Source: Acidobacteria bacterium RIFCSPLOWO2_12_FULL_66_21
Lineage (GTDB): Bacteria; Acidobacteriota; Vicinamibacteria; Vicinamibacterales; 2-12-FULL-66-21
Reading direction: 5' to 3'
Assembly (NCBI GenBank): GCA_001767455.1
Contig: MELC01000036.1
Span: 1 to 53,706, forward strand
Length of the DNA: 53,706 nt
Below, one piece after another: positions 15,961-25,126 of the stretch (the stretch's first letter is position 1; every line of letters begins with the position of its first letter). A model generated the notes under the pieces. It saw only the letters and a program-made list of their open reading frames with translations, had not been told where the DNA came from and did not search any database. The position numbers were made by a program, and so were the translations under genes.

Positions 15961-16057
15961 GCGGCAGCGGTCCGGGCGGGCGATTGGGGCCGAAGCTCAG
16001 CCGTGGGTTTTTGCGGCGCCGCCGCCGACCGGACCGTGTCCCATCCGTCAGGTACGA

Positions 16058-16063
16058 TATATT
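16058..16063 (+). promoter_or_regulatory. Putative -10 hexamer of the gas-vesicle cluster (TATATT)
   Basis: TATATT ends eight bases before the ATG at 16072. An overlapping TACGAT at 16053-16058 is an alternative. Both lie in otherwise GC-rich DNA and suggest a nearly leaderless transcript. I see no clear -35. Confidence 0.35.
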
Positions 16064-16071
16064 CGCTCGGC

Positions 16072-16404
16072 ATGGCATTCGAGCTCCCTCCGTCTGGGCA
16101 CCGCGCAACCGGGCTTGTCGACGTTCTCGATCGTGTGCTCGACAAGGGGTTGGTGATCGCGGGCGACATCAAAGTGTCGCTGGCGGAAGTCGAACTGCTG
16201 ACGATACGGATTCGGCTTCTCGTGTGCTCGCTCGACAAGGCGCAGGAAATCGGACTGGACTGGTGGCGGTACGACCGCGACCTGTCCCCCGGCGCGCAAC
16301 GCGCCGCGCTTGCCGAGCACGACGCGATGCGCGCGCAGATCGAGCGGCTCGAACGAAAGGTGAACGCGTTGACCCCGGCGGCGCCGGCCCGCCGGCGGCG
16401 ATGA
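16072..16404 (+). CDS. gvpJ: Gas vesicle shell-family protein, GvpJ/GvpM type
   Basis: This 110-residue protein has the GvpA-family core [19 protein letters not shown], then VSLAEVELLTIRIRLLVCS and DKAQEIGLDWW. The AGDI and the DWW ending fit the minor shell proteins GvpJ and GvpM better than GvpA. A charged helical tail (AALAEHDAMRAQIERLERKV) and a terminal RRRR follow the core. By family knowledge it is a minor, hydrophobic component that helps nucleate or shape the vesicle. It is the first gene of the cluster, 27 bases before gvpA. The start ATG 16072 is chosen because the frame upstream is not protein-like. Confidence 0.88.
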   Translation: MAFELPPSGHRATGLVDVLDRVLDKGLVIAGDIKVSLAEVELLTIRIRLLVCSLDKAQEIGLDWWRYDRDLSPGAQRAALAEHDAMRAQIERLERKVNALTPAAPARRRR

Positions 16405-16431: not shown

Positions 16432-16791
16432 ATGGCAGTTGAACGGGCAGCAGGCGGCACCAGTCTCATCGACGTTCTCGACCGCGTGCTCGACAAGGGC
16501 ATCGTGATCGACGCGTGGGTGCGGGTGTCGCTGGTCGGCATCGACCTGATCACCGTTGAGGCGCGGGTCGTGGTGGCGTCGATCGACACGTATCTGAAGT
16601 ACTCGGAAGCCGTCGGGCAGGTTTCCCCGGTGTCGCGGCCTCAGGCCGAGCTGGCGGCGCATCAGAGCGTGATTGCGGAGAACGCTGCGCTGCGGGCGGA
16701 GCTAGCCGCCATGCGCGCGCCACAACTGGCCGCAACCCGCGCGCCACGCAAGAGACGGACCGGGGCGCGGAGGCGCACCGTCGAGGGATAA
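16432..16791 (+). CDS. gvpA: Major gas vesicle structural protein GvpA with extended tail
   Basis: The core is a nearly classical Gvp[20 protein letters not shown], then [20 protein letters not shown] and [13 protein letters not shown]. GvpA monomers polymerise into the gas-permeable, water-excluding shell ribs. Known GvpA proteins are about 70-75 residues. This one is 119, because after residue 65 or so it adds a helical stretch ([19 protein letters not shown]) and a basic end with [15 protein letters not shown] at 16421-16425, six bases before ATG 16432, is the best ribosome site in the cluster, which fits a highly made protein. The histidine kinase begins four bases after its stop. Confidence 0.93.
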
Positions 16792-16794
16792 CCC

Positions 16795-18924
16795 GTGCAC
16801 CGGTCCGCAGTGACGGCCGTGCAGCATCCCGGCGTCGACATGGAGGCGAAACTCGCGTTCGCGGAGTTTCTGCTGACCGACACGGATCTGCAGGCCTCCA
16901 GCCGCCGTGGAATCGACTGGCTCGCCGCGCACTCGACCGTGCAGCAGGCGGTGGTGGCCGTGTCGGAGCCTGGCGCGGGGCCGCTCCTTCTCGTCGCTGA
17001 GCACGGCGTGTCCTCGTCGGCCATCGCCGACTTCTCCCTGAGCCGCGAGGAAGACGGCCATCCCCTCATCCGCGCGCTGCAGCAGCCAGGCGCCACCTAC
17101 TTCGAGGCCGGCCAGATTCCCTTCCGATCGCCGATCGAAGGAGCCTCGTTCCACGCGATTCCGCTGCGCGCCGATGAGGATCCCGTCGCCCACGGCCTGC
17201 TGCTCGCCAGCGCGACCGGTCCCGAGCTGCATCCCGATGTCGCGTGGATGGCTCGGATGCTCGGGCGCCAGGTGTCGCGGCTGCTGAGCCGGCAGACGCT
17301 GGCCGAGACCCGCTTCGGCCAGGAGCGGATGCTGCTCTACAGCATCATCAACGCGGTCACCGACCCGATTCTTCTCACGGACACCGAAGGCAAGCTGATC
17401 ATCGCGAACACCCACGCGGAGAAGCTCTTCGCCGCGCCCGAGGACGCGAGCGAAGGCTGGCGCCGCGCCGTCGCCTTGAACAACATGCTCTTCTCGGCGG
17501 CGCTCTCGACGAGCGCCGTCACGCACATCGAGCTGGCACGGCGCGAGCTGCTGCTGGTCGATCCGCTGGAAGGATCCGACCTGCTCTTCGAGCTGCTGAG
17601 CTCGCGCGCCAAGGACGAGCGGCAGGGCACCTACGTCGTCTCGATCCTGCGCAACGTCACGGACCTCGCCCGCGCCAAGGAGGAGATCGAGGAGAGCTAC
17701 CGGACGCTGCGGCTCGCGCAGGCCGAAGTGCGCGATGAGCGGCACCGCCTCGATCTGATCATCGACTCGGTGGCCGATCCGATCCTGGTGACCAACCAGG
17801 AAGGGGACATCGTGCTGATGAACGAGCCGGCCGAGCGGCTCTTCAACGTGCCGCCGTCGGCCGAGGAAGTGTCGCTGCGGCGCGTGCGGGCGAACGGCGC
17901 GAACCTCACGTCGTTCGTGTCGAACGTGCTGACCCGCAGCGGCGAGCAGCGGTACCGCGGCGAGATCCAGTTGAGCGACCCGATGAGCGGCCGGCCGCTG
18001 CCGGTCGAGGGGCTGGCCGGCCAGATCCTGTCCGAGCAGGGCGAGTTGATGTGGGTCGTGACGATCCTGCACGACCTCACCGAAGCGCTCGAAAAGGCGC
18101 GGCTGTACGAGCAGTTGAAGCAGGGGTCGGCGGATCTCGAGCGCAAGGTGCAGGAGGCGACCGCGGAGCTCGCCGAGCAGAACGAGCTGCTGCGGCGGCA
18201 GCACATCGCCCTCGAGCAGGCGTCGGCGTTGAAGTCGCAGTTCCTCGCCAACATGTCGCACGAGTTCCGGACGCCGCTCAACGCGATCCTGGGCTACACG
18301 CACATGCTGCTCAACGGCGTGACCGGTCCCATCCAGGAGTCGCAGCGCAAGAGCCTGTCGCGGATCGATTCCAACTCACGGCACCTGCTGGCGCTCATCA
18401 ACGACATCCTCGACATCACGAGGATCGAAGCGGGCCGGATGCCGCTGAACCTCTCGACGTTCCAGATTCCGGAACTCGTTTACGAGGTGATGGCGGAGCT
18501 GGAGCCGATCATCAAGCGCTCGAACCTGACGGTGTCCGCCAGCGTGCGCGGCGGGCTCCCGTCGCTCAAGAGCGATCGGCAGAAGGTCAAGCAGATCGTG
18601 CTGAACCTGCTCAGCAACGCGCTGAAGTTCACCACGGCGGGCTCGGTGACGATCGGCGCCACCTACGACGTGAAGGGGCGCACGGTCGGCATCGCCGTGC
18701 GGGACACCGGCGTCGGGATTGCGCTCGAGGATCAAATCAAGGTCTTCGAGGACTTCCGTCAGCTCGACAGCTCTCCCGCCCGCGGCTACGGCGGAACGGG
18801 CCTCGGCCTCTCGATCTGCCGGCGGCTGGCGCAGATGCTCGGCGGCACCATCGAGTTGAAGAGCCAGCCGGGCCACGGCTCGACCTTCACCTTGCGGCTG
18901 CCCGCGCGCCTGAGACGCCGATGA
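16795..18924 (+). CDS. Soluble PAS-domain sensor histidine kinase
   Basis: This 709-residue kinase begins at GTG 16795, four bases after gvpA; an ATG at 16840 is an alternative start. The first 170 residues look like a GAF-type sensor domain. Two PAS domains follow, each introduced by a similar phrase (INAVTDPILLTDTEGKLIIA and IDSVADPILVTNQEGDIVLM), then a coiled coil near residues 430-475. The HisKA box has the phospho-acceptor H489 in MSHEFRTPLNAILGY. The ATPase domain shows NLLSNALKF, DTGVGIA and GYGGTGLGLSI. No membrane segment is present, so it senses a cytoplasmic signal. It shares ATGA with the next gene, its likely receiver partner. Its location inside a gas-vesicle operon suggests it controls vesicle formation. 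Confidence 0.92.
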   Translation: MHRSAVTAVQHPGVDMEAKLAFAEFLLTDTDLQASSRRGIDWLAAHSTVQQAVVAVSEPGAGPLLLVAEHGVSSSAIADFSLSREEDGHPLIRALQQPGATYFEAGQIPFRSPIEGASFHAIPLRADEDPVAHGLLLASATGPELHPDVAWMARMLGRQVSRLLSRQTLAETRFGQERMLLYSIINAVTDPILLTDTEGKLIIANTHAEKLFAAPEDASEGWRRAVALNNMLFSAALSTSAVTHIELARRELLLVDPLEGSDLLFELLSSRAKDERQGTYVVSILRNVTDLARAKEEIEESYRTLRLAQAEVRDERHRLDLIIDSVADPILVTNQEGDIVLMNEPAERLFNVPPSAEEVSLRRVRANGANLTSFVSNVLTRSGEQRYRGEIQLSDPMSGRPLPVEGLAGQILSEQGELMWVVTILHDLTEALEKARLYEQLKQGSADLERKVQEATAELAEQNELLRRQHIALEQASALKSQFLANMSHEFRTPLNAILGYTHMLLNGVTGPIQESQRKSLSRIDSNSRHLLALINDILDITRIEAGRMPLNLSTFQIPELVYEVMAELEPIIKRSNLTVSASVRGGLPSLKSDRQKVKQIVLNLLSNALKFTTAGSVTIGATYDVKGRTVGIAVRDTGVGIALEDQIKVFEDFRQLDSSPARGYGGTGLGLSICRRLAQMLGGTIELKSQPGHGSTFTLRLPARLRRR

Positions 18925-19364
18925 CCGACAGGACCAACGGCCGGGCGCTCGTGCTTGTCGTGGAGGACTACCAGGATGCGCGGGAGATGTACGCCGCGTA
19001 CCTCCAGTTCTCCGGGTACCGCGTCGCGGAGGCGGCCAACGGCATCGAGGCGATCGAGAAGACGCTCGAGCTGCTGCCGGATATCATCCTCATGGATCTG
19101 GCGCTGCCGAAGATGGACGGCTGGGAGGCCACACGGCGGCTGAAGATGGACGATCGGACCCGGCACATTCCGATCGTCGCCCTGACGGGCCATGCGCTCG
19201 CGGGGTACAGGGAAGGCGCGCGGCAGGCGGGCTGCGATTCGTTCGTCACGAAGCCGTGCCTGCCCGACGCGCTGGTCGCTGAAATCGAGCGGATGCTCGC
19301 CTCCGGCGGCGGACCCGACAAGAGGCGCAAGCGGCCGCCCCGTCCCGCAGGACGTGGCCGCTGA
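18921..19364 (+). CDS. Single-domain response regulator
   Basis: This 147-residue receiver starts at ATG 18921 inside the kinase stop. It has the acidic pair in VVEDYQDA, the phospho-acceptor D59 in LMDLALPKMDGWE, the Thr in ALTGHA and the Lys in FVTKPCLP, so all active residues are present. There is no DNA-binding output domain; the chain ends in a basic tail (KRRKRPPRPAGRGR). It may pass phosphate onward or act by binding a partner protein. It is flanked by gvpA/kinase and gvpF/L genes in one direction, which ties it to the gas-vesicle locus. Confidence 0.92.
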   Translation: MTDRTNGRALVLVVEDYQDAREMYAAYLQFSGYRVAEAANGIEAIEKTLELLPDIILMDLALPKMDGWEATRRLKMDDRTRHIPIVALTGHALAGYREGARQAGCDSFVTKPCLPDALVAEIERMLASGGGPDKRRKRPPRPAGRGR

Positions 19365-19398
19365 CCCCGGACTCGACTGGAACCTGGACAGGACACAG

Positions 19399-20325
19399 AT
19401 GGCAAAGACGACGAAGAGGGCGACGGCAGCTTCCGCGAGACGCAAGGCGTCAACTCCGGCCCGGCGGGCCGCCAGGGCCGCGCCGGCCGTCCCCGCGCGC
19501 GGCAAGCTGGAGCGCGTGCGCATGCCGGCACACGCGGCCCGGCACCGCGGCGAGGGACAGGCGGCCGAAGACTCGAACGCCGGACGCTACGTGTACTGCA
19601 TCATCAAGTCCGAGCGGCCGCTCAGCTTCGGTCCGCTCGGCATCGGGTCCGAGCCGACCGACGTGCACACGGTGCACTTTCGCGACATTGCCGCCGTCGT
19701 GTCGAATACGCCCATGGTCGTCCAGGATCCGACGCGCGACAACGTCCTGGCGCACCAGCGCGTCAACGAGACGGTCATGCAGCAGCACACCGTCATCCCG
19801 ATGTCGTTCGGCACCGTGTTCAAGACCGACGACGACATCATCGAGCTGCTGCGATCGGCGTACGACGCCTTCACCGACGTCCTGAACAAGATGCAGGACA
19901 AGTTCGAGTTCGGGTTGAAGGTCCTCTGGGATCGCGACCAGATCATCCGCGAGATCGAGGAGGACGACGAGGACATCCGGCGCCTCAAGGGGGAGATCTC
20001 GTCGCAGAAGGGTTCGACCTACTTCGCGCGGATGCAGTACGGGCGCTTGATCGACGCCGCGCTGCAGGCCCGGTCGGAGCGGTACGTGGCCGAGATCTTC
20101 GAGGCGCTCCGCGACGTGTCGGTCGCCTCCCGATCGAACAAGCCGATCGGCGACCGCATGATCATGAACGCCGCGTTCCTCGTGGCGCGGAGCCTCGAGC
20201 AGGCGTTCGACGCGCGCGTCAAGGGCATCGGGCAGCGCTACGACAAGCTCACGTTCAAATACACCGGCCCGTGGCCGCCGTACAACTTCGTGAACATCCG
20301 GCTCAAGCTCGAAAGGGCGCATTAG
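19399..20325 (+). CDS. gvpL: Gas vesicle accessory protein GvpF/GvpL (first copy)
   Basis: GvpF/L proteins are essential accessory factors that bind GvpA and assist its assembly. The family part starts with GRYVYCIIKSE, shows the typical HTVIPMSFGTVFK segment, a long helical middle (RQ..DEDIRRLKGEI) and the signature ending YTGPWPPYNFVNIRLK. ATG 19399 has AGGACA upstream. The chain is 308 residues because an N-terminal extension of about 65 residues, rich in Lys, Arg, Ala and Pro, precedes the domain. It is the best-conserved of three F/L copies here. The gvpG gene follows after 18 bases. Confidence 0.92.
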   Translation: MAKTTKRATAASARRKASTPARRAARAAPAVPARGKLERVRMPAHAARHRGEGQAAEDSNAGRYVYCIIKSERPLSFGPLGIGSEPTDVHTVHFRDIAAVVSNTPMVVQDPTRDNVLAHQRVNETVMQQHTVIPMSFGTVFKTDDDIIELLRSAYDAFTDVLNKMQDKFEFGLKVLWDRDQIIREIEEDDEDIRRLKGEISSQKGSTYFARMQYGRLIDAALQARSERYVAEIFEALRDVSVASRSNKPIGDRMIMNAAFLVARSLEQAFDARVKGIGQRYDKLTFKYTGPWPPYNFVNIRLKLERAH

Positions 20326-20343: not shown

Positions 20344-20646
20344 ATGTTCATTCTCGACTCCGTCCTCATCGGCGGCCTCCGGTTCGTGTTCGACAAGATC
20401 GCGGCCGCCGTGGATACCGAACTGAACGACGACACGGCGCTCCGCGAGCAGCTCCTGGCCGCGCAGATGCGGCTCGAGCTGGACGAAATCAGCCGCCAGG
20501 AGTTCGAGGAAATCGAAGCAGACGCCCTCGCGCGCCTGCGGGAGATCCGCGAGCGGCGGCAGGGCGGCGAGGCGTCGGCGCTCTCGCCGAAGGATTACAA
20601 GATTACCGGCATTGAGGCCTCGTTCGAAGGCGAAGAGCACGACTGA
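20344..20646 (+). CDS. gvpG: Gas vesicle protein GvpG
   Basis: This 100-residue protein has the short hydrophobic GvpG start MFILDSVLIGGLRFVFDKIA, followed by a charged helical body (LREQLLAAQMRLELDEIS and EIEADALARLREIRERR). GvpG is an accessory protein that interacts with GvpF/L and GvpA during assembly. It directly follows a GvpF/L gene, its usual neighbour, and its 3' end overlaps the ATPase gene by 35 bases. Ribosome site upstream is weak. Confidence 0.87.
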   Translation: MFILDSVLIGGLRFVFDKIAAAVDTELNDDTALREQLLAAQMRLELDEISRQEFEEIEADALARLREIRERRQGGEASALSPKDYKITGIEASFEGEEHD

Positions 20647-22624
20647 GCCCGGCGACCGCGGCGCCGCGCGTTTCGAGTTCGTCGGCGGCAAAGGCGGCGT
20701 CGGGAAGACGACCTGCGCCGCGGCGCTCGCTGTCGCCGCCGCCCGGAGCGGGCGGCGCACGCTCATCATCTCCACCGATCCCGCCCCTTCGCTGGGTGAC
20801 GCGCTGGGCCGCAGGCTGGGCCCCGCGCCGCGTTCCGTCGCCGTCCGCCGCGGCGCCCTGCACGCCGTCGAGATCGATTCCACACGCGCGCTCGATCGCT
20901 GGATCGGCGAACGCCGCGAGGCACTCGAGCGCATCGCGCTGCGCGGCACGTGGCTCGACAGCGAAGACGTCGCGCGGCTGCTTCGCCTCTCGCTGCCGGG
21001 CATCGATGAGATCGCCGCGTTGTTCGAGATCGCGCGCTGGGGCCGCTCGCCTCGCTTCGATCGCATCGTCGTCGACACCGCGCCGACCGGGCACACGCTG
21101 AGGATGCTCGCGATGCCGGCGGCGTTGAGCGCGATGGCGCGCGTGTTCGATCACATGCAGGCGAAGCACCGGGCGATGGTGGCCGCGCTTCGCGGCGGAT
21201 GGACGCCCGATGCGGAGGACGCGCTCATCGAGGAGCTGGACCGCGACGGCCGCGAGCTCGCGGCGCTGCTGCGCGATCCGGCCCGCGTGCGGATGTCGTG
21301 GGTGACGATCGCGGAGCCGATGGCCGTCGAGGAAACGGCCGATGCCGCGCGCGCCCTGGCCGGGCTCGATATCCCAGTCGCGCGGGTGATCGTCAACCGC
21401 TTGACGCCGCCGCCTCCCGCCCGGTGCGGCTGGTGCGACGCGAGGCGGACGTTCGAACGGGCCGCCATGCGGCGCCTCGCCGCGTTGTTGCCGGGCGCGG
21501 CGACCATCACGGTGGCCGAGCGCGACCGGGAGCCACGCGGCGTCACGGCGCTCGCCGCGATCGGCGCTGCGCTCTCGGGCGCATCCCGGCCATCACGGAT
21601 CGCGGGCCCGGCCGGCCGCGGATCGCGCACCTGGCGATCGGCTTCCACCGGGCGGGACGCGATCGCCGCCGGACTCGCCGGGCCTGAGACGCGGCTGCTG
21701 CTGTTCGGAGGCAAGGGCGGGGTCGGAAAGACGACGTGCGCCGCCGCCGCGGCCATCCTTGTCGCGCGGCGCTCGCCGGCACGGCGCGTGCTCGCGATCT
21801 CCACGGACCCGGCGCACTCGCTCGGTGATGCGCTCGCCGTCGCGCTCTCCGACCGACCGCGCCACGTGCCGGGAACGCCCCTGAACCTGCGGGCGCGGGA
21901 GCTCGATGCCGCTCGCGCGTTTCGCCAGGTACGGAACCGCTACGCCGGCGCCATCGATGCGCTCTTCGATCGGATCGGGCGCGGTGCGTCGCTGGATCTC
22001 ACGCACGACCGCCAGGTCATGCAGGACCTGATCGAACTGGCACCGCCCGGGATTGACGAGCTCGCGGCGATCATCGCGGCCCTGCCGCGAGCGCACGCGG
22101 CCTCGGCTGACGATCTCGTCGTGATGGACACGGCACCGACCGGCCACGCGCTGCGGCTGCTCGAGATGCCGGAAATCGTGCAGGACTGGGTCAAGGCGTT
22201 GATGTCGATCCTGTTGAAGTACCAGCCAATCGCCGGCATCGGCGCGTTCGGCGAGGTGCTGCTGAAGCTGTCCCAGGACCTCGGACGCCTGCGCGCGCTG
22301 CTCGCCGACCCTCAGCGGGCGGCATTCATCGTGGTTACACGGCCGGCCGCGCTGCCACGGGCGGAAACGACGCGGCTGCTCGGCCGGCTTCGCTCGATGC
22401 ATATCCACGTGCCGGCCGTCATCGTCAACGCCACGGGTCGCGGAACGTGCCGCCGCTGCCGCCGCGCCGGAGCCGCCGAGCGCCGGGAGATTGCCGCGCT
22501 GAAGGCGGGACTGGCAAAAGGCGCCGCGCGACCCCTGCTCGCGACCGCGCCGGCGGAGATACCTCCGCCAGGGGGAGCCTCGTCTCTGACGCGCTGGGCG
22601 CGGACGTGGAGGAGGGGCACGTAG
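20612..22624 (+). CDS. Tandem ArsA/Get3-type ATPase in the gas-vesicle cluster
   Basis: This 670-residue protein is a fused pair of ArsA/Get3 domains. Each half has the deviant P-loop GGKGGVGKTT (residues 25-34 and about 366-375), a switch I (TDPAPSLGDA, TDPAHSLGDA), a switch II (DTAPTGHTLRML, DTAPTGHALRLL) and a late CxxC pair (CGWC; CRRC) like the zinc clasp of Get3. The only usable start is TTG 20612, inside gvpG. ArsA pumps need arsB/arsD/arsR neighbours, and none is here. Get3 proteins carry hydrophobic membrane proteins. As the cluster lacks a GvpN-type AAA protein, this ATPase may supply the energy-driven chaperone step for GvpA-family subunits. The family call is firm; the role is inference. 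Confidence 0.9.
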   Translation: MRPRSKAKSTTEPGDRGAARFEFVGGKGGVGKTTCAAALAVAAARSGRRTLIISTDPAPSLGDALGRRLGPAPRSVAVRRGALHAVEIDSTRALDRWIGERREALERIALRGTWLDSEDVARLLRLSLPGIDEIAALFEIARWGRSPRFDRIVVDTAPTGHTLRMLAMPAALSAMARVFDHMQAKHRAMVAALRGGWTPDAEDALIEELDRDGRELAALLRDPARVRMSWVTIAEPMAVEETADAARALAGLDIPVARVIVNRLTPPPPARCGWCDARRTFERAAMRRLAALLPGAATITVAERDREPRGVTALAAIGAALSGASRPSRIAGPAGRGSRTWRSASTGRDAIAAGLAGPETRLLLFGGKGGVGKTTCAAAAAILVARRSPARRVLAISTDPAHSLGDALAVALSDRPRHVPGTPLNLRARELDAARAFRQVRNRYAGAIDALFDRIGRGASLDLTHDRQVMQDLIELAPPGIDELAAIIAALPRAHAASADDLVVMDTAPTGHALRLLEMPEIVQDWVKALMSILLKYQPIAGIGAFGEVLLKLSQDLGRLRALLADPQRAAFIVVTRPAALPRAETTRLLGRLRSMHIHVPAVIVNATGRGTCRRCRRAGAAERREIAALKAGLAKGAARPLLATAPAEIPPPGGASSLTRWARTWRRGT

Positions 22625-22687: not shown

Positions 22688-23470
22688 ATGGCCGAAGGAA
22701 CCGCGAGTTATCTGTACTGCATCGTGCGTTCGGCGTCGAAGCCGCGAACGACGCGTGTGCCGGACGGGATACCGGGGGCCGGGCCGGTGTCGCTCGTACT
22801 TGTGGGTCGGAACGTGTGGATCGTGGCGGCGAGCGTGCCTTTGAGCACATATGGGCCGGAGCCGCTCGAGCGCGGACTCGCTGATATGCAATGGGTTGGT
22901 GAAGTCGCCGTCGCGCACGAGGCAGTCGTCGAGCATTTTGCCCGGACGCGCGGCGCTACCGTCATCCCCATGAAGCTGTTCACCATGTTCTCCAGCGAGA
23001 GGCGCGCCTCGGAGGACGTCAAGGCACGGCTCGATGAGGTACGGGCCGTGTTGAAGCGGATAAACGGCTGCGAGGAGTGGGGAATTCGCGTCACGAGGGC
23101 GTCCGTTTCACCCGCCGCCGGGCGACCGGGGACGTCCGCGTCATCCGGTGCGGCCTTTCTCGCGGCGAAGAAGCAGGCCCGCGACGATGCCCGGCGGCAG
23201 ATCGAGGCTGCGGCCGAAGCGGCGGCGGAGGCATTCGCGGTCTTGAGCCGCGTCGCGCGCGACGTGCGCCGGCGCGACGATGCGCCGGCGGGGGCCGAGG
23301 CGCCCCCGCTGCTCGACGCGGCCTTTCTGGTGCCCGTTCGCCGCCTGCCGCGCTTCAAAGCCGTGGCGCGGAAAGCCGCGGCCCGCTGCAACACGGCCGG
23401 CACGCACATGATCCTTACGGGGCCGTGGCCCGCGTACAACTTCGCCCAACCGCCCGGGACGATCCCATGA
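22688..23470 (+). CDS. Gas vesicle accessory protein GvpF/GvpL (second copy)
   Basis: This 260-residue protein has the GvpF/L opening ASYLYCIVRS, the middle segment TRGATVIPMKLFTMF, a helical insert rich in Ala and Arg, and the signature ending LTGPWPAYNFAQP. It is shorter and more divergent than the first copy, with an Ala-rich helix (AAAEAAAEAFAVLSR). Its stop shares ATGA with the small GvpA-family gene at 23467. Several F/L paralogues in one cluster are usual in gas-vesicle loci, where they act at different assembly steps. Confidence 0.88.
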   Translation: MAEGTASYLYCIVRSASKPRTTRVPDGIPGAGPVSLVLVGRNVWIVAASVPLSTYGPEPLERGLADMQWVGEVAVAHEAVVEHFARTRGATVIPMKLFTMFSSERRASEDVKARLDEVRAVLKRINGCEEWGIRVTRASVSPAAGRPGTSASSGAAFLAAKKQARDDARRQIEAAAEAAAEAFAVLSRVARDVRRRDDAPAGAEAPPLLDAAFLVPVRRLPRFKAVARKAAARCNTAGTHMILTGPWPAYNFAQPPGTIP

Positions 23471-23772
23471 AACCGCGCCGGACGAGACATACGACCGTCA
23501 CCACGGCGCATCCGCCCAGGACGGTGCTGCCGCGTCGTCCTGCGCACCCGGCTCCGCCGCGCCGCGGCCCGGCGCCCCCGCCACCGAAACGCGAGGTCGC
23601 GCGGATCATCGACCAGTCGCAGGCGTCGCTCGTCGACGTGATTGACAACCTGCTCAACCGCGGCGTCGTGCTCAACGCCGATCTGATCCTGGCGCTTGCG
23701 GACGTGGATCTCGTCTACGTCCGGCTGTCGGCGCTGCTTTGTGCCGCAGACCGCGTGTCGCCGCGCCGATGA
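23467..23772 (+). CDS. GvpA-family minor protein (GvpS/GvpJ-like) with basic N-terminal tail
   Basis: This 101-residue protein has a GvpA-family core, SLVDVIDNLLNRGVVLNAD, then LILALADVDLVYVRLSALL. The LALADVDLVY stretch resembles GvpS and short GvpJ proteins of actinobacteria. The core is preceded by about 50 residues that are almost entirely Arg, Pro, Thr and His, an unusual disordered extension. It starts in the stop of the second gvpF/L and ends in the start of the third, so three products are translated as a chain. Confidence 0.82.
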   Translation: MKPRRTRHTTVTTAHPPRTVLPRRPAHPAPPRRGPAPPPPKREVARIIDQSQASLVDVIDNLLNRGVVLNADLILALADVDLVYVRLSALLCAADRVSPRR

Positions 23773-24425
23773 CCGGCTGGTACGTCTATGCCCTGACGGG
23801 CGCCGCGGCTCCCCCATTCCGGGCGGGCCATCGGCAGATTGAGTTCGTCCGGATCGGCCAGTTTCACGCGGCGATTGCCCGAATGGCGGAGGCGCCGGCG
23901 CTCTCCGAGGCGGCGCTCCAGGACCAGCACGCGATTGTGTCCGCGATCGCCGGGAAAGTGGACGCGCTGCTGCCCGCGCGGTTCGGCGCGTTCGTGGACG
24001 AGGCGGAGCTGGCGGCGATCGTGGAGTGGCGCGCCGGCGCGATCGCGGAGGCGCTCGCGCTCGTGCGCGGGCGCGAGCAGATGACCGTACGCATCACCGG
24101 CGAGCCGGAATCCGCTCCCGTCCACGCGATCGATTCGCCGAGCGGCACGGACTACCTGCAACAGCGCCGGGCGGCCGCCTCGCCGCCGTTTCCGCACGTC
24201 GTCGCCGCGATCGAGAAGGCGGTCCGCTCGATCGCCGGCGCGACCCGCGTCGAACCAGGTCGGGACCGCGCACGGACGTCCGTGTATCACCTGATCGAGC
24301 GCGGCACGTCGGACGTCTATCGCGATGCGCTTCGGTCCATGCCGCAAACGGTGACCGCGTCCCTGGAGATCGTCGTCAGCGGTCCGTGGCCTCCTTTCGC
24401 GTTTGCGCCAGAACTGCTGGCGTAG
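23769..24425 (+). CDS. Gas vesicle accessory protein GvpF/GvpL (third copy)
   Basis: This 218-residue protein starts at ATG 23769, overlapping the previous stop by ATGA. It opens with GWYVYALTGA, has the segment ALLPARFGAFVDE in the place of the usual 'VIPMRFG' phrase, and ends with SGPWPPFAFAPELLA, the GvpF/L signature. It is the shortest and most divergent of the three F/L proteins. Partial divergence of the middle segment suggests specialisation. A dispersed repeat separates it from gvpK. Confidence 0.85.
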   Translation: MTGWYVYALTGAAAPPFRAGHRQIEFVRIGQFHAAIARMAEAPALSEAALQDQHAIVSAIAGKVDALLPARFGAFVDEAELAAIVEWRAGAIAEALALVRGREQMTVRITGEPESAPVHAIDSPSGTDYLQQRRAAASPPFPHVVAAIEKAVRSIAGATRVEPGRDRARTSVYHLIERGTSDVYRDALRSMPQTVTASLEIVVSGPWPPFAFAPELLA

Positions 24426-24712: not shown

Positions 24713-25126
24713 ATGAAAAAGACTCGCTCCCCTGCACGCCCCGCCAGAACGCGCAAACGAGCGCGGCGGCCCGTCACGACCGCGCCGGCGGAGGCCAGCC
24801 TCGAGGTCCACGAAGTCGAGTCGCTGCGCGCCGAGCTGAACCGCCTGAAGATGCACGGAACCACGCCCAGGTGGAACGCCGATCCCGACGACGTGCGACG
24901 GTCGGTAGCGAAGCTCGTGCTGACGCTGGTGGAGTTCATCCGGCAGGTTCTGGAACGGCAGGCGATCCGGCGCATGGACGACGAGACGCTGACCGCGGAG
25001 GAGACGGAGTCGATCGGCCTCGCGCTCATGCGCCTCGAGGAAACGCTTCGCGATCTTTGCGCTCAGTTTGGACTCGAGCCCGAAGATCTGAACATCGACC
25101 TCGGACCCATCGGGAAACTGGTGTAA
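24713..25126 (+). CDS. gvpK: Gas vesicle protein GvpK
   Basis: GvpK is a conserved accessory protein needed for vesicle assembly. The family core is clear: RWNADPDDVRRSVAKLVLTL, then VEFIRQVLERQAIRRMDD and a C-terminal ETLRDLCAQFGLEPEDLN ending GPIGKL. The 137-residue chain has a basic start (KKTRSPARPARTRKRARRP) not needed for the family fold. It is the last gene of the cluster. A TAGAAT hexamer lies 22 bases upstream of ATG 24713, so it may have its own promoter after the repeat. Confidence 0.93.
   Translation: MKKTRSPARPARTRKRARRPVTTAPAEASLEVHEVESLRAELNRLKMHGTTPRWNADPDDVRRSVAKLVLTLVEFIRQVLERQAIRRMDDETLTAEETESIGLALMRLEETLRDLCAQFGLEPEDLNIDLGPIGKLV

What the first reader, a model, noticed from the sequence alone, without database searches (positions are those of the whole stretch)
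20612..22624. Tandem Get3/ArsA-like ATPase inside a gas-vesicle operon without GvpN
The cluster has GvpA/J, F/L, G and K but no recognisable AAA-type GvpN, which most gas-vesicle systems need. In its place sits a fused double ArsA/Get3 ATPase with two intact P-loops, matching switch motifs and a CxxC pair in each half, translationally coupled to gvpG. Get3 carries hydrophobic tail-anchored proteins; GvpA-family subunits are among the most hydrophobic soluble-made proteins. A shell-subunit chaperone would be a new role for the family. I do not know whether this pairing has been described.
Basis: partly seen in the sequence, partly recalled or inferred. Interest (0 to 1): 0.85.

Follow-up and report, generated by a model that had tools for sequence, protein, structure and literature searches.

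The report
Get3-type ATPase of gas-vesicle operons
A gas-vesicle gene cluster in a probably acidobacterial genome carries a double Get3/ArsA ATPase next to gvpG; the pairing was first reported in 2010, but here it belongs to a distinct gas-vesicle lineage that lacks the usual GvpN motor and makes its shell protein with an extra tail.

Summary
ORF 20612-22624 is a tandem Get3/ArsA ATPase that overlaps gvpG by 35 bases, in a gvp cluster whose genome has no GvpN. The pairing is not new: Castillo & Saier (2010, PMC2963123) described two-domain ArsA homologues in gvp operons, including an acidobacterial cluster whose gene list omits gvpN.

What I add: (1) gvp-linked ATPases form one clade, apart from arsenite-pump ArsA and archaeal Get3, with their own tandem duplication. 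They have a Get3-length client domain, mostly Get3-type CxxC pairs, and no arsenite cysteine motif. (2) The window lies in a 31-row GvpF clade (support 99/97) with no GvpN in any of the 31 genomes. (3) The ATPase does not simply replace GvpN: it also occurs with GvpN, and 4 of the 31 clusters lack both. (4) This lineage has a C-terminally extended GvpA in all 29 loci measured, with or without the ATPase.

Most likely it is an ATP-driven Get3-like carrier for hydrophobic Gvp subunits, working with GvpF/GvpG. The client is inferred, not shown.

The parts
20612..22624 (+). tandem Get3/ArsA-family ATPase (P-loops near residues 25-34 and 366-375; DTAPTGH near 155 and 506; CxxC in each half)
   Evidence: TTG start overlapping gvpG by 35 bases
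20344..20646 (+). gvpG, directly upstream of and overlapping the ATPase
   Evidence: Pfam PF05120 E 1.2e-13
19279..20325 (+). gvpF (GvpL/GvpF family; exact start uncertain)
   Evidence: Pfam PF06386 E 2.8e-76
22688..23470 (+). gvpL-type (GvpL/GvpF family)
   Evidence: PF06386 E 2.4e-39
23467..23772 (+). gvpJ/M-type small GvpA-family protein (start uncertain)
   Evidence: PF00741 E 4.6e-12; NCBIfam GvpM/GvpJ hits below their cut-offs
23739..24425 (+). third GvpL/GvpF-family protein (start uncertain)
   Evidence: PF06386 E 2.6e-21
24713..25126 (+). gvpK
   Evidence: PF05121 E 4.1e-33
16432..16791 (+). gvpA shell protein with a C-terminal extension (119 aa)
   Evidence: NCBIfam PRK09371 113 bits over cut-off 100; tail compared
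16003..16404 (+). second GvpA-family protein (GvpJ/A-like, extended)
   Evidence: PF00741 E 6.1e-17; NCBIfam hits below cut-offs
16795..18924 (+). PAS/PAS histidine kinase, conserved between gvpA and gvpF in much of this lineage
18921..19364 (+). response-regulator receiver protein paired with the kinase
   Evidence: PF00072 E 5e-25

Best explanation
The ORF is a gas-vesicle-operon ATPase of the Get3/ArsA family: two Get3-like halves fused into one pseudodimer. It most likely works as Get3 does. ATP closes the two halves into a clamp whose helical domains form a hydrophobic groove; hydrolysis opens it and releases the client. The likely clients are hydrophobic segments of GvpA-family proteins (GvpA, GvpJ), probably received from GvpF/GvpG, with which the gene is co-encoded, and delivered to the nascent vesicle. 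Shown by comparison: family, predicted fold, intact motifs, gvp-linked clade, own tandem duplication, usual place after gvpG. Inferred: client, handover from GvpF/GvpG, delivery. It is an accessory factor that occurs with or without GvpN, not a strict replacement for it.
For: Gvp-linked single and double ATPases form one clade (92 rows, SH-aLRT 100), apart from arsenite ArsA (24 rows, 100) and archaeal Get3; N-halves (98) and C-halves (99) point to one duplication within it. 45 of 53 tandem ATPases in gvp loci directly follow gvpG, and in two genomes whose cluster is split (G067, G254) the ATPase stays with gvpF-gvpG while L-J-L-K and the gvpA genes lie on other contigs. The stretch from DTAPTGH to the conserved Asn is Get3-long (medians 101/94 in gvp halves, 106 in archaeal Get3, 87/76 in non-gvp tandem ArsA; some ranges overlap, as the end was set by a simple pattern); the SCxGP motif is in 30 of 42 non-gvp N-halves and in 0 of 29 and 0 of 13 gvp N-halves. 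CxxC in both halves: 24 of 29 (GvpN-less) and 16 of 17 (GvpN-positive) tandem proteins, against 0 of 43 non-gvp tandem ones. AlphaFold2 model pLDDT 84.8, pTM 0.85 matches ArsA and Get3, including client-bound Get3. By profile search the top solved chain is Chlamydomonas ArsA1, a Get3-like pseudodimer that carries tail-anchored proteins (PMC11170914, abstract and passages). GvpF, and possibly GvpG, are proposed chaperones of GvpA (PMC11445434, PMC7688916, passages).
Against: No experiment links the ATPase to any client. GvpF, and perhaps GvpG, may suffice as chaperones. Cyanobacterial vesicles form in mammalian cells from gvpA plus gvpNJKFGWV, with no ArsA gene in that list (PMC10344784, passages). 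The ATPase is missing from 4 of 31 clusters of its own lineage and from 16 of 30 GvpN-positive survey rows. By whole-model structure comparison closed arsenite ArsA ranks first (Z 32.8 over 539 residues) above Get3 chains (Z up to 26.6, one half only). CxxC is reduced or lost in family f34 and G067 of the window's phylum and absent in 8 of 8 cyanobacterial tandem relatives. Relatives exist with no gvp genes in the DNA held (L128; cyanobacterial L127, L129, L131-L133).
Confidence: 0.55

Rival explanations
1. Functional replacement of GvpN: the ATPase supplies the energy for bicone-to-cylinder elongation in clusters that lost GvpN.
For: GvpN was not found in the window's genome or in any of the 31 genomes of its GvpF clade; 22 of 26 survey members of that clade carry the ATPase, against 14 of 30 GvpN-positive survey rows in the tree.
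Against: Four clusters of the clade lack both proteins, at least three losses if the ATPase is ancestral, without GvpN returning; the same ATPase clade occurs with GvpN; only 2 GvpN changes on the tree, so no independent replication; a Streptomyces cluster has neither in 18.7 kb.
Confidence: 0.12
2. GvpN-less clusters are a separate gvp class whose tailed GvpA changes assembly so that GvpN is not needed; the ATPase is an older accessory unrelated to the loss of GvpN.
For: GvpA core-to-stop length 83-115 residues in 29 loci of the GvpN-less type against 59-76 in 39 loci of the GvpN-positive set, no overlap; the tail is kept where the ATPase is lost (L082, L083, L222) and is seen in Streptomyces and Rhodococcus. 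This can hold together with the best explanation.
Against: Only two lineages, so the link may be inherited coincidence; tails of one family are short and not basic; one genome, G1102, has a tailed-GvpA cluster and also GvpN in another gvp cluster; no gas vesicles have been seen in S. coelicolor, whose cluster lacks gvpN (PMC4982088, passage), so such clusters may make something else or nothing.
Confidence: 0.35
3. An arsenite-pump ArsA that happens to sit in the gvp cluster.
For: Same superfamily; two-domain closed ArsA structures rank first in the fold searches.
Against: Separate clade, no SCxGP cysteine motif, 184 bits against a cut-off of 650 for the arsenite-pump model TIGR04291, conserved gvpG adjacency in several phyla.
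Confidence: 0.02
4. A SIMIBI ATPase that positions or partitions vesicles or the Gvp nucleation complex, in the manner of ParA/MinD, rather than carrying subunits.
For: ArsA/Get3 belongs to the same NTPase class (recalled); weak ParA and MinD hits.
Against: Closer to Get3/ArsA by far (358 bits against 60.5 for ParA); Get3-like helical region. The literature on vesicle partitioning was not searched; the one paper asked has no mention of ParA or partition.
Confidence: 0.08

Closest known systems
Two-domain ArsA homologues of gvp operons (Castillo & Saier 2010, clusters 4 and 6; PMC2963123)
   Same: Same kind of protein in the same kind of operon, including an acidobacterial cluster listed with two L/F genes and J, K, M but no N (section 3.3 read).
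   Different: Few genomes there; in the parts I read it does not test GvpN absence, single-domain gvp relatives, gvpG adjacency or the GvpA tail. The window protein has Get3-type CxxC pairs.
Get3/TRC40 (archaeal and eukaryotic tail-anchored protein carriers)
   Same: P-loop and switch motifs, CxxC in each half, client-domain length, fold.
   Different: Fused pseudodimer; encoded in a gvp operon; Get1/2, Get4/5 and Sgt2 partners not looked for; clients unknown.
Chlamydomonas ArsA1 (5zme/5zmf)
   Same: Tandem Get3-like pseudodimer; top hit by profile.
   Different: Lacks CxxC (PMC11170914); serves chloroplast tail-anchored proteins.
Bacterial arsenite-pump ArsA (1f48, 9nbw)
   Same: Tandem architecture and fold.
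   Different: Separate clade with its own halves; shorter helical region and SCxGP motif.

Membership tests
gvp-linked ArsA/Get3 ATPases (Castillo & Saier 2010) | two ArsA domains, about 640 aa, inside a gvp operon | tested here: met
   670 aa, two ArsA_ATPase stretches, gvpG upstream and gvpL downstream
gvp-linked ArsA/Get3 ATPases (Castillo & Saier 2010) | groups with other gvp-linked ATPases in a tree | tested here: met
   both halves inside the 92-row gvp clade, SH-aLRT 100; the 2010 proteins themselves were not in the tree
Get3/TRC40 | intact P-loop, DTAPTGHT switch motif and CxxC per half | tested here: met
   (the C-half reads DTAPTGHA)
Get3/TRC40 | binds hydrophobic transmembrane segments and delivers them to a receptor | not testable with these tools
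   no binding data; fold and client-domain length only
Get3/TRC40 | branches with archaeal/eukaryotic Get3 | tested here: inconclusive
   gvp clade lies on the archaeal-Get3 side of the arsenite ArsA branch (100), but as a separate group; unrooted, no eukaryotic rows
Arsenite-pump ArsA (TIGR04291) | score over the curated cut-off (650 bits) | tested here: not met
   184.2 bits
Arsenite-pump ArsA (TIGR04291) | arsenite-binding cysteine motif in the N-half (read here as SCxGP, a pattern of my own) | tested here: not met
   0 of 29 GvpN-less gvp N-halves, the window included; 30 of 42 non-gvp N-halves
GvpN (TIGR02640) | AAA-type GvpN model over the cut-off anywhere in the genome | tested here: not met
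   best 32.6 bits against 266.8; protein query none

The most novel reading that the evidence does not exclude
A second class of gas-vesicle system, found here in genomes of Acidobacteriota, Myxococcota, Planctomycetota and the Rokubacteria phylum, builds its shell without GvpN: a tailed GvpA, fed by a relay GvpF to GvpG to a gvp-specific pseudodimeric Get3, replaces the AAA+ elongation step, so that a Get3-type ATPase serves as a chaperone for a soluble-made organelle shell rather than for membrane proteins.
Probability: 0.2. Interest if true: 0.8.

Novelty: new variant of a known kind. Interest (0 to 1): 0.5.

Why it matters
How very hydrophobic GvpA is kept soluble and added to a growing vesicle is open. 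A Get3-type carrier encoded beside the proposed GvpA chaperones gives a concrete, testable component, in both GvpN-positive and GvpN-less clusters. The GvpN-less lineage with tailed GvpA asks directly whether GvpN is needed for elongation everywhere, or whether these clusters make bicones, cylinders or something else. It could also supply a new module for engineered vesicles.

Tried and rejected
Rejected: arsenite ArsA (tree, cysteine motif, model score); chance adjacency (conserved after gvpG); a hidden gvpN elsewhere in the genome (two searches).

GvpN/ATPase swap: the raw 2x2 table of 57 survey rows in the tree (GvpN-less 23 with and 4 without the ATPase; GvpN-positive 14 with and 16 without; Fisher p 0.0048) looked favourable, but independent pairs gave only 2 comparisons, sign-test p at least 0.5. 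One of the 23, L096 (G170), lies in the GvpN-positive part of the tree on a 9.6 kb contig, so its GvpN may be unassembled. Three of the 14 are single-domain (L238, L239, L252), and that of L239's genome is on another contig with a gvpF/L match.

Against a clean split: G1102 has a cluster of the GvpN-less type (L233, L236) and a second one with GvpN (L234, L275); its first GvpF was not in the tree because no gvpG was found in the stretch held. G946, G376, G399 and G402 are GvpN-less too but have no row in the tree. G325 has a second tandem ATPase far from gvp, of arsenite type (L113).

Rows dropped: the tree leaves out 11 long or odd rows of the 86. Named loci were left out of the 2x2 because they were found through the ATPase. 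Rows with unknown states were not counted. Of 43 genomes with a GvpF/L match in the Rokubacteria phylum, 26 were carried on; the other 17 had one weak match each. The GvpK model drifted into GvpA; that annotation was discarded and redone. (GET3/ArsA family at E 1e-30) missed ATPases that the local profile finds in G1078 and G1079 (L224, L225), so its negatives are not used; absence from clusters rests on the local profile. In one search two rows labelled N-half (L102, L207) sit among C-halves because my script found only one P-loop; I read them as C-halves. In one search the N-half of L087 was missed by my position threshold, and L128, with CxxC twice, was counted among one-domain proteins. 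The Met and hydrophobic-moment comparison was suggestive only and is not used.

GvpA comparison: 29 of 30 loci given as GvpN-less type had a GvpA over 45 bits (L150 had none; L233 is from G1102, above), and 39 of 52 given as GvpN-positive; of those 39, L270 is from a genome where GvpN was not found, and two are plasmids. The query was the window's own GvpA core, so very different GvpA could be missed. L150 and L232 are the same place, so one tandem ATPase is counted twice in the 53.

Not in print, as far as searched: no paper holds both 'gas vesicle' and 'Get3'; none 'gas vesicle' with 'Rokubacteria'; one paper, on a thermophilic cyanobacterium (listing only), holds 'gas vesicle', 'GvpA' and 'C-terminal extension'. 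Open-access papers only. An NCBIfam GvpA model of 143 positions (PRK09368) suggests that long GvpA is known as such.

Full report
Observation. The ORF at 20612-22624 encodes a tandem Get3/ArsA-family ATPase with two intact P-loops, two DTAPTGH motifs and a CxxC in each half. Its only usable in-frame start ahead of the P-loop, TTG 20612, lies inside gvpG. It stands in the order GvpA-family, GvpA, histidine kinase, response regulator, GvpF, GvpG, ATPase, GvpL, GvpJ/M, GvpF/L, GvpK. GvpN was not found in the genome (6.48 Mb, 100% complete by the tool's figure).

Prior work. Castillo & Saier 2010 (PMC2963123; abstract, sections 3.3 and 3.12 and passages read) already report two-domain ArsA homologues in gvp operons of four phyla, propose that they energise a step of vesicle biogenesis, and note that the E. 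coli ArsA cysteines are not conserved in them. Their acidobacterial cluster is listed without gvpN; the parts I read do not remark on it. No held paper has both 'gas vesicle' and 'Get3'.

What the protein is. A tree of 124 halves and single-domain proteins puts gvp-linked ATPases in one group of 92 rows (SH-aLRT 100). Ten single-domain ones, from Chlorobiota, Nitrospinota and others, lie outside the tandem halves, which form an N-half group (98) and a C-half group (99): most simply one duplication. Arsenite-pump ArsA is a separate group (100) with its own pair of halves. The gvp halves have a Get3-length client region and no SCxGP motif; 40 of 46 gvp tandem proteins have CxxC in both halves, none of 43 non-gvp tandem ones. 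The predicted structure (pLDDT 84.8, pTM 0.85, 19 sequences) matches closed ArsA (Z 32.8) and Get3 (Z up to 26.6), including client-bound Get3. The best solved relative by profile is the tandem ArsA1 of Chlamydomonas, which carries tail-anchored proteins (PMC11170914, abstract and passages).

Neighbourhood. Of 53 tandem ATPases in gvp loci (one counted twice), 45 directly follow gvpG. In G067 and G254, where the cluster is in two or three places, the ATPase stays with gvpF and gvpG (L089, L101) while the L-J-L-K genes and the gvpA genes are elsewhere (L088; L099, L100). GvpF is the one partner of GvpA found in Halobacterium (PMC7688916, abstract and passages), and GvpF and possibly GvpG are proposed chaperones of GvpA2 (PMC11445434, passages). 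This is why I place the ATPase in the subunit-handling step.

GvpN. In the window's phylum 24 of 396 sampled genomes have GvpA-family genes; 9 of 24 have GvpN. The ATPase is with gvp genes in 11 of the 15 without GvpN and in 4 of the 9 with it. GvpN is in 15 of those 23 genomes; it is absent from all 7 of the closest relatives (Acidobacteria, a deltaproteobacterial genome, two Labilithrix, two Planctomycetota, Rokubacteria) and from one more (L125, a 3.1 kb contig). Surveys by GvpF/L: 14 of 329 genomes in the Labilithrix phylum, 17 of 294 in the Planctomycetota, 43 of 95 in the Rokubacteria phylum; GvpN in 29 of 56 of those checked (27 over the cut-off).

The GvpF tree shows one 31-row clade holding the window, none of whose genomes has GvpN (SH-aLRT 95 in the 86-row tree; bootstrap/SH-aLRT 99/97 in the 75-row tree; GvpN). 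A GvpN protein query finds none in 37 GvpN-less genomes, the 31 among them (one weak 30%-identity hit in G595), and finds it in 6 of 6 controls. Within the clade 27 rows have the ATPase and 4 do not (L081, L082, L083, L222). So GvpN was most simply lost once, and the ATPase, if ancestral, was lost at least three times afterwards; a simple replacement is unlikely. One genome, G1102, holds both a cluster of this type and a GvpN-positive one; its GvpF had no row in the tree.

Shell protein. In 29 loci of the GvpN-less type GvpA runs 83-115 residues from core start to stop; in 39 loci of the GvpN-positive set it runs 59-76 (exceptions to the labels under Tried and rejected). The tail often has a conserved AENxALRAxL-like stretch and a basic end, but is short and not basic in one family of the window's phylum. 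It is present where the ATPase is missing (L082, L083, L222), and in Streptomyces and Rhodococcus plasmid loci where no GvpN is annotated or found within 9 kb. The tail, not the ATPase, is thus the more constant companion of GvpN absence. Two lineages are too few for a causal claim.

Function. GvpN mutants still form small bicones in Serratia and elsewhere (PMC4982088 and PMC11445434, passages), so GvpN-less clusters could make small vesicles, cylinders by another route, or, as in S. coelicolor, none that anyone has seen (PMC4982088, passage). I judge the ATPase most likely a Get3-like carrier for GvpA-family subunits (0.55), with the client inferred.

Verdict. Real, conserved and gvp-linked; pairing known since 2010; part of a distinct GvpN-less lineage with a tailed GvpA, in which this protein is common but not obligatory.

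Noticed in passing
window 16795-19364; L079-L083, L119-L121, L135, L138, L150, L199, L220-L229, L233, L235, L256: A PAS histidine kinase like the window's, mostly with a response regulator, lies by gvpA/gvpF in 26 of 35 loci of the GvpN-less type looked at, across phyla, suggesting a dedicated two-component control.
   Followed up: partly
window 16432-16791 and GvpN-less loci: GvpA carries a C-terminal extension, often with a conserved AENxALRAxL-like stretch and a basic end; it tracks the GvpN-less type without overlap in the loci measured.
   Followed up: partly
L128 9920-11923: Citreicoccus inhibens has a tandem ATPase of the gvp clade with CxxC twice but no gvp genes within 10 kb; neighbours include a sigma-54 activator and acetyl-CoA carboxylase.
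   Followed up: partly
L127, L129, L131, L132, L133: Cyanobacterial tandem ATPases without CxxC and with no gvp genes in the DNA held, unlike L126, L130 and L148; L127 and L131 place in the gvp clade, the others were not in the tree.
   Followed up: no
genomes: 43 of 95 genomes of the Rokubacteria phylum have a GvpF/L match, 26 of them strong, though no held paper joins gas vesicles and Rokubacteria.
   Followed up: partly
L221, L223, L228, L229, L235: A second histidine kinase is inserted between gvpF and gvpG in these clusters.
   Followed up: no
L081 (G293): This genome has GvpF, G, L, J, K but only one GvpA-family match in the whole genome, so its cluster may be decaying or incompletely assembled.
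   Followed up: no
L233, L236, L234, L275 (G1102): One genome seems to hold two gvp systems, one of the GvpN-less type and one with GvpN.
   Followed up: no
L124 (G405): GvpN copies here are split or carry an in-frame TGA on a contig labelled Dehalococcoides mccartyi.
   Followed up: no
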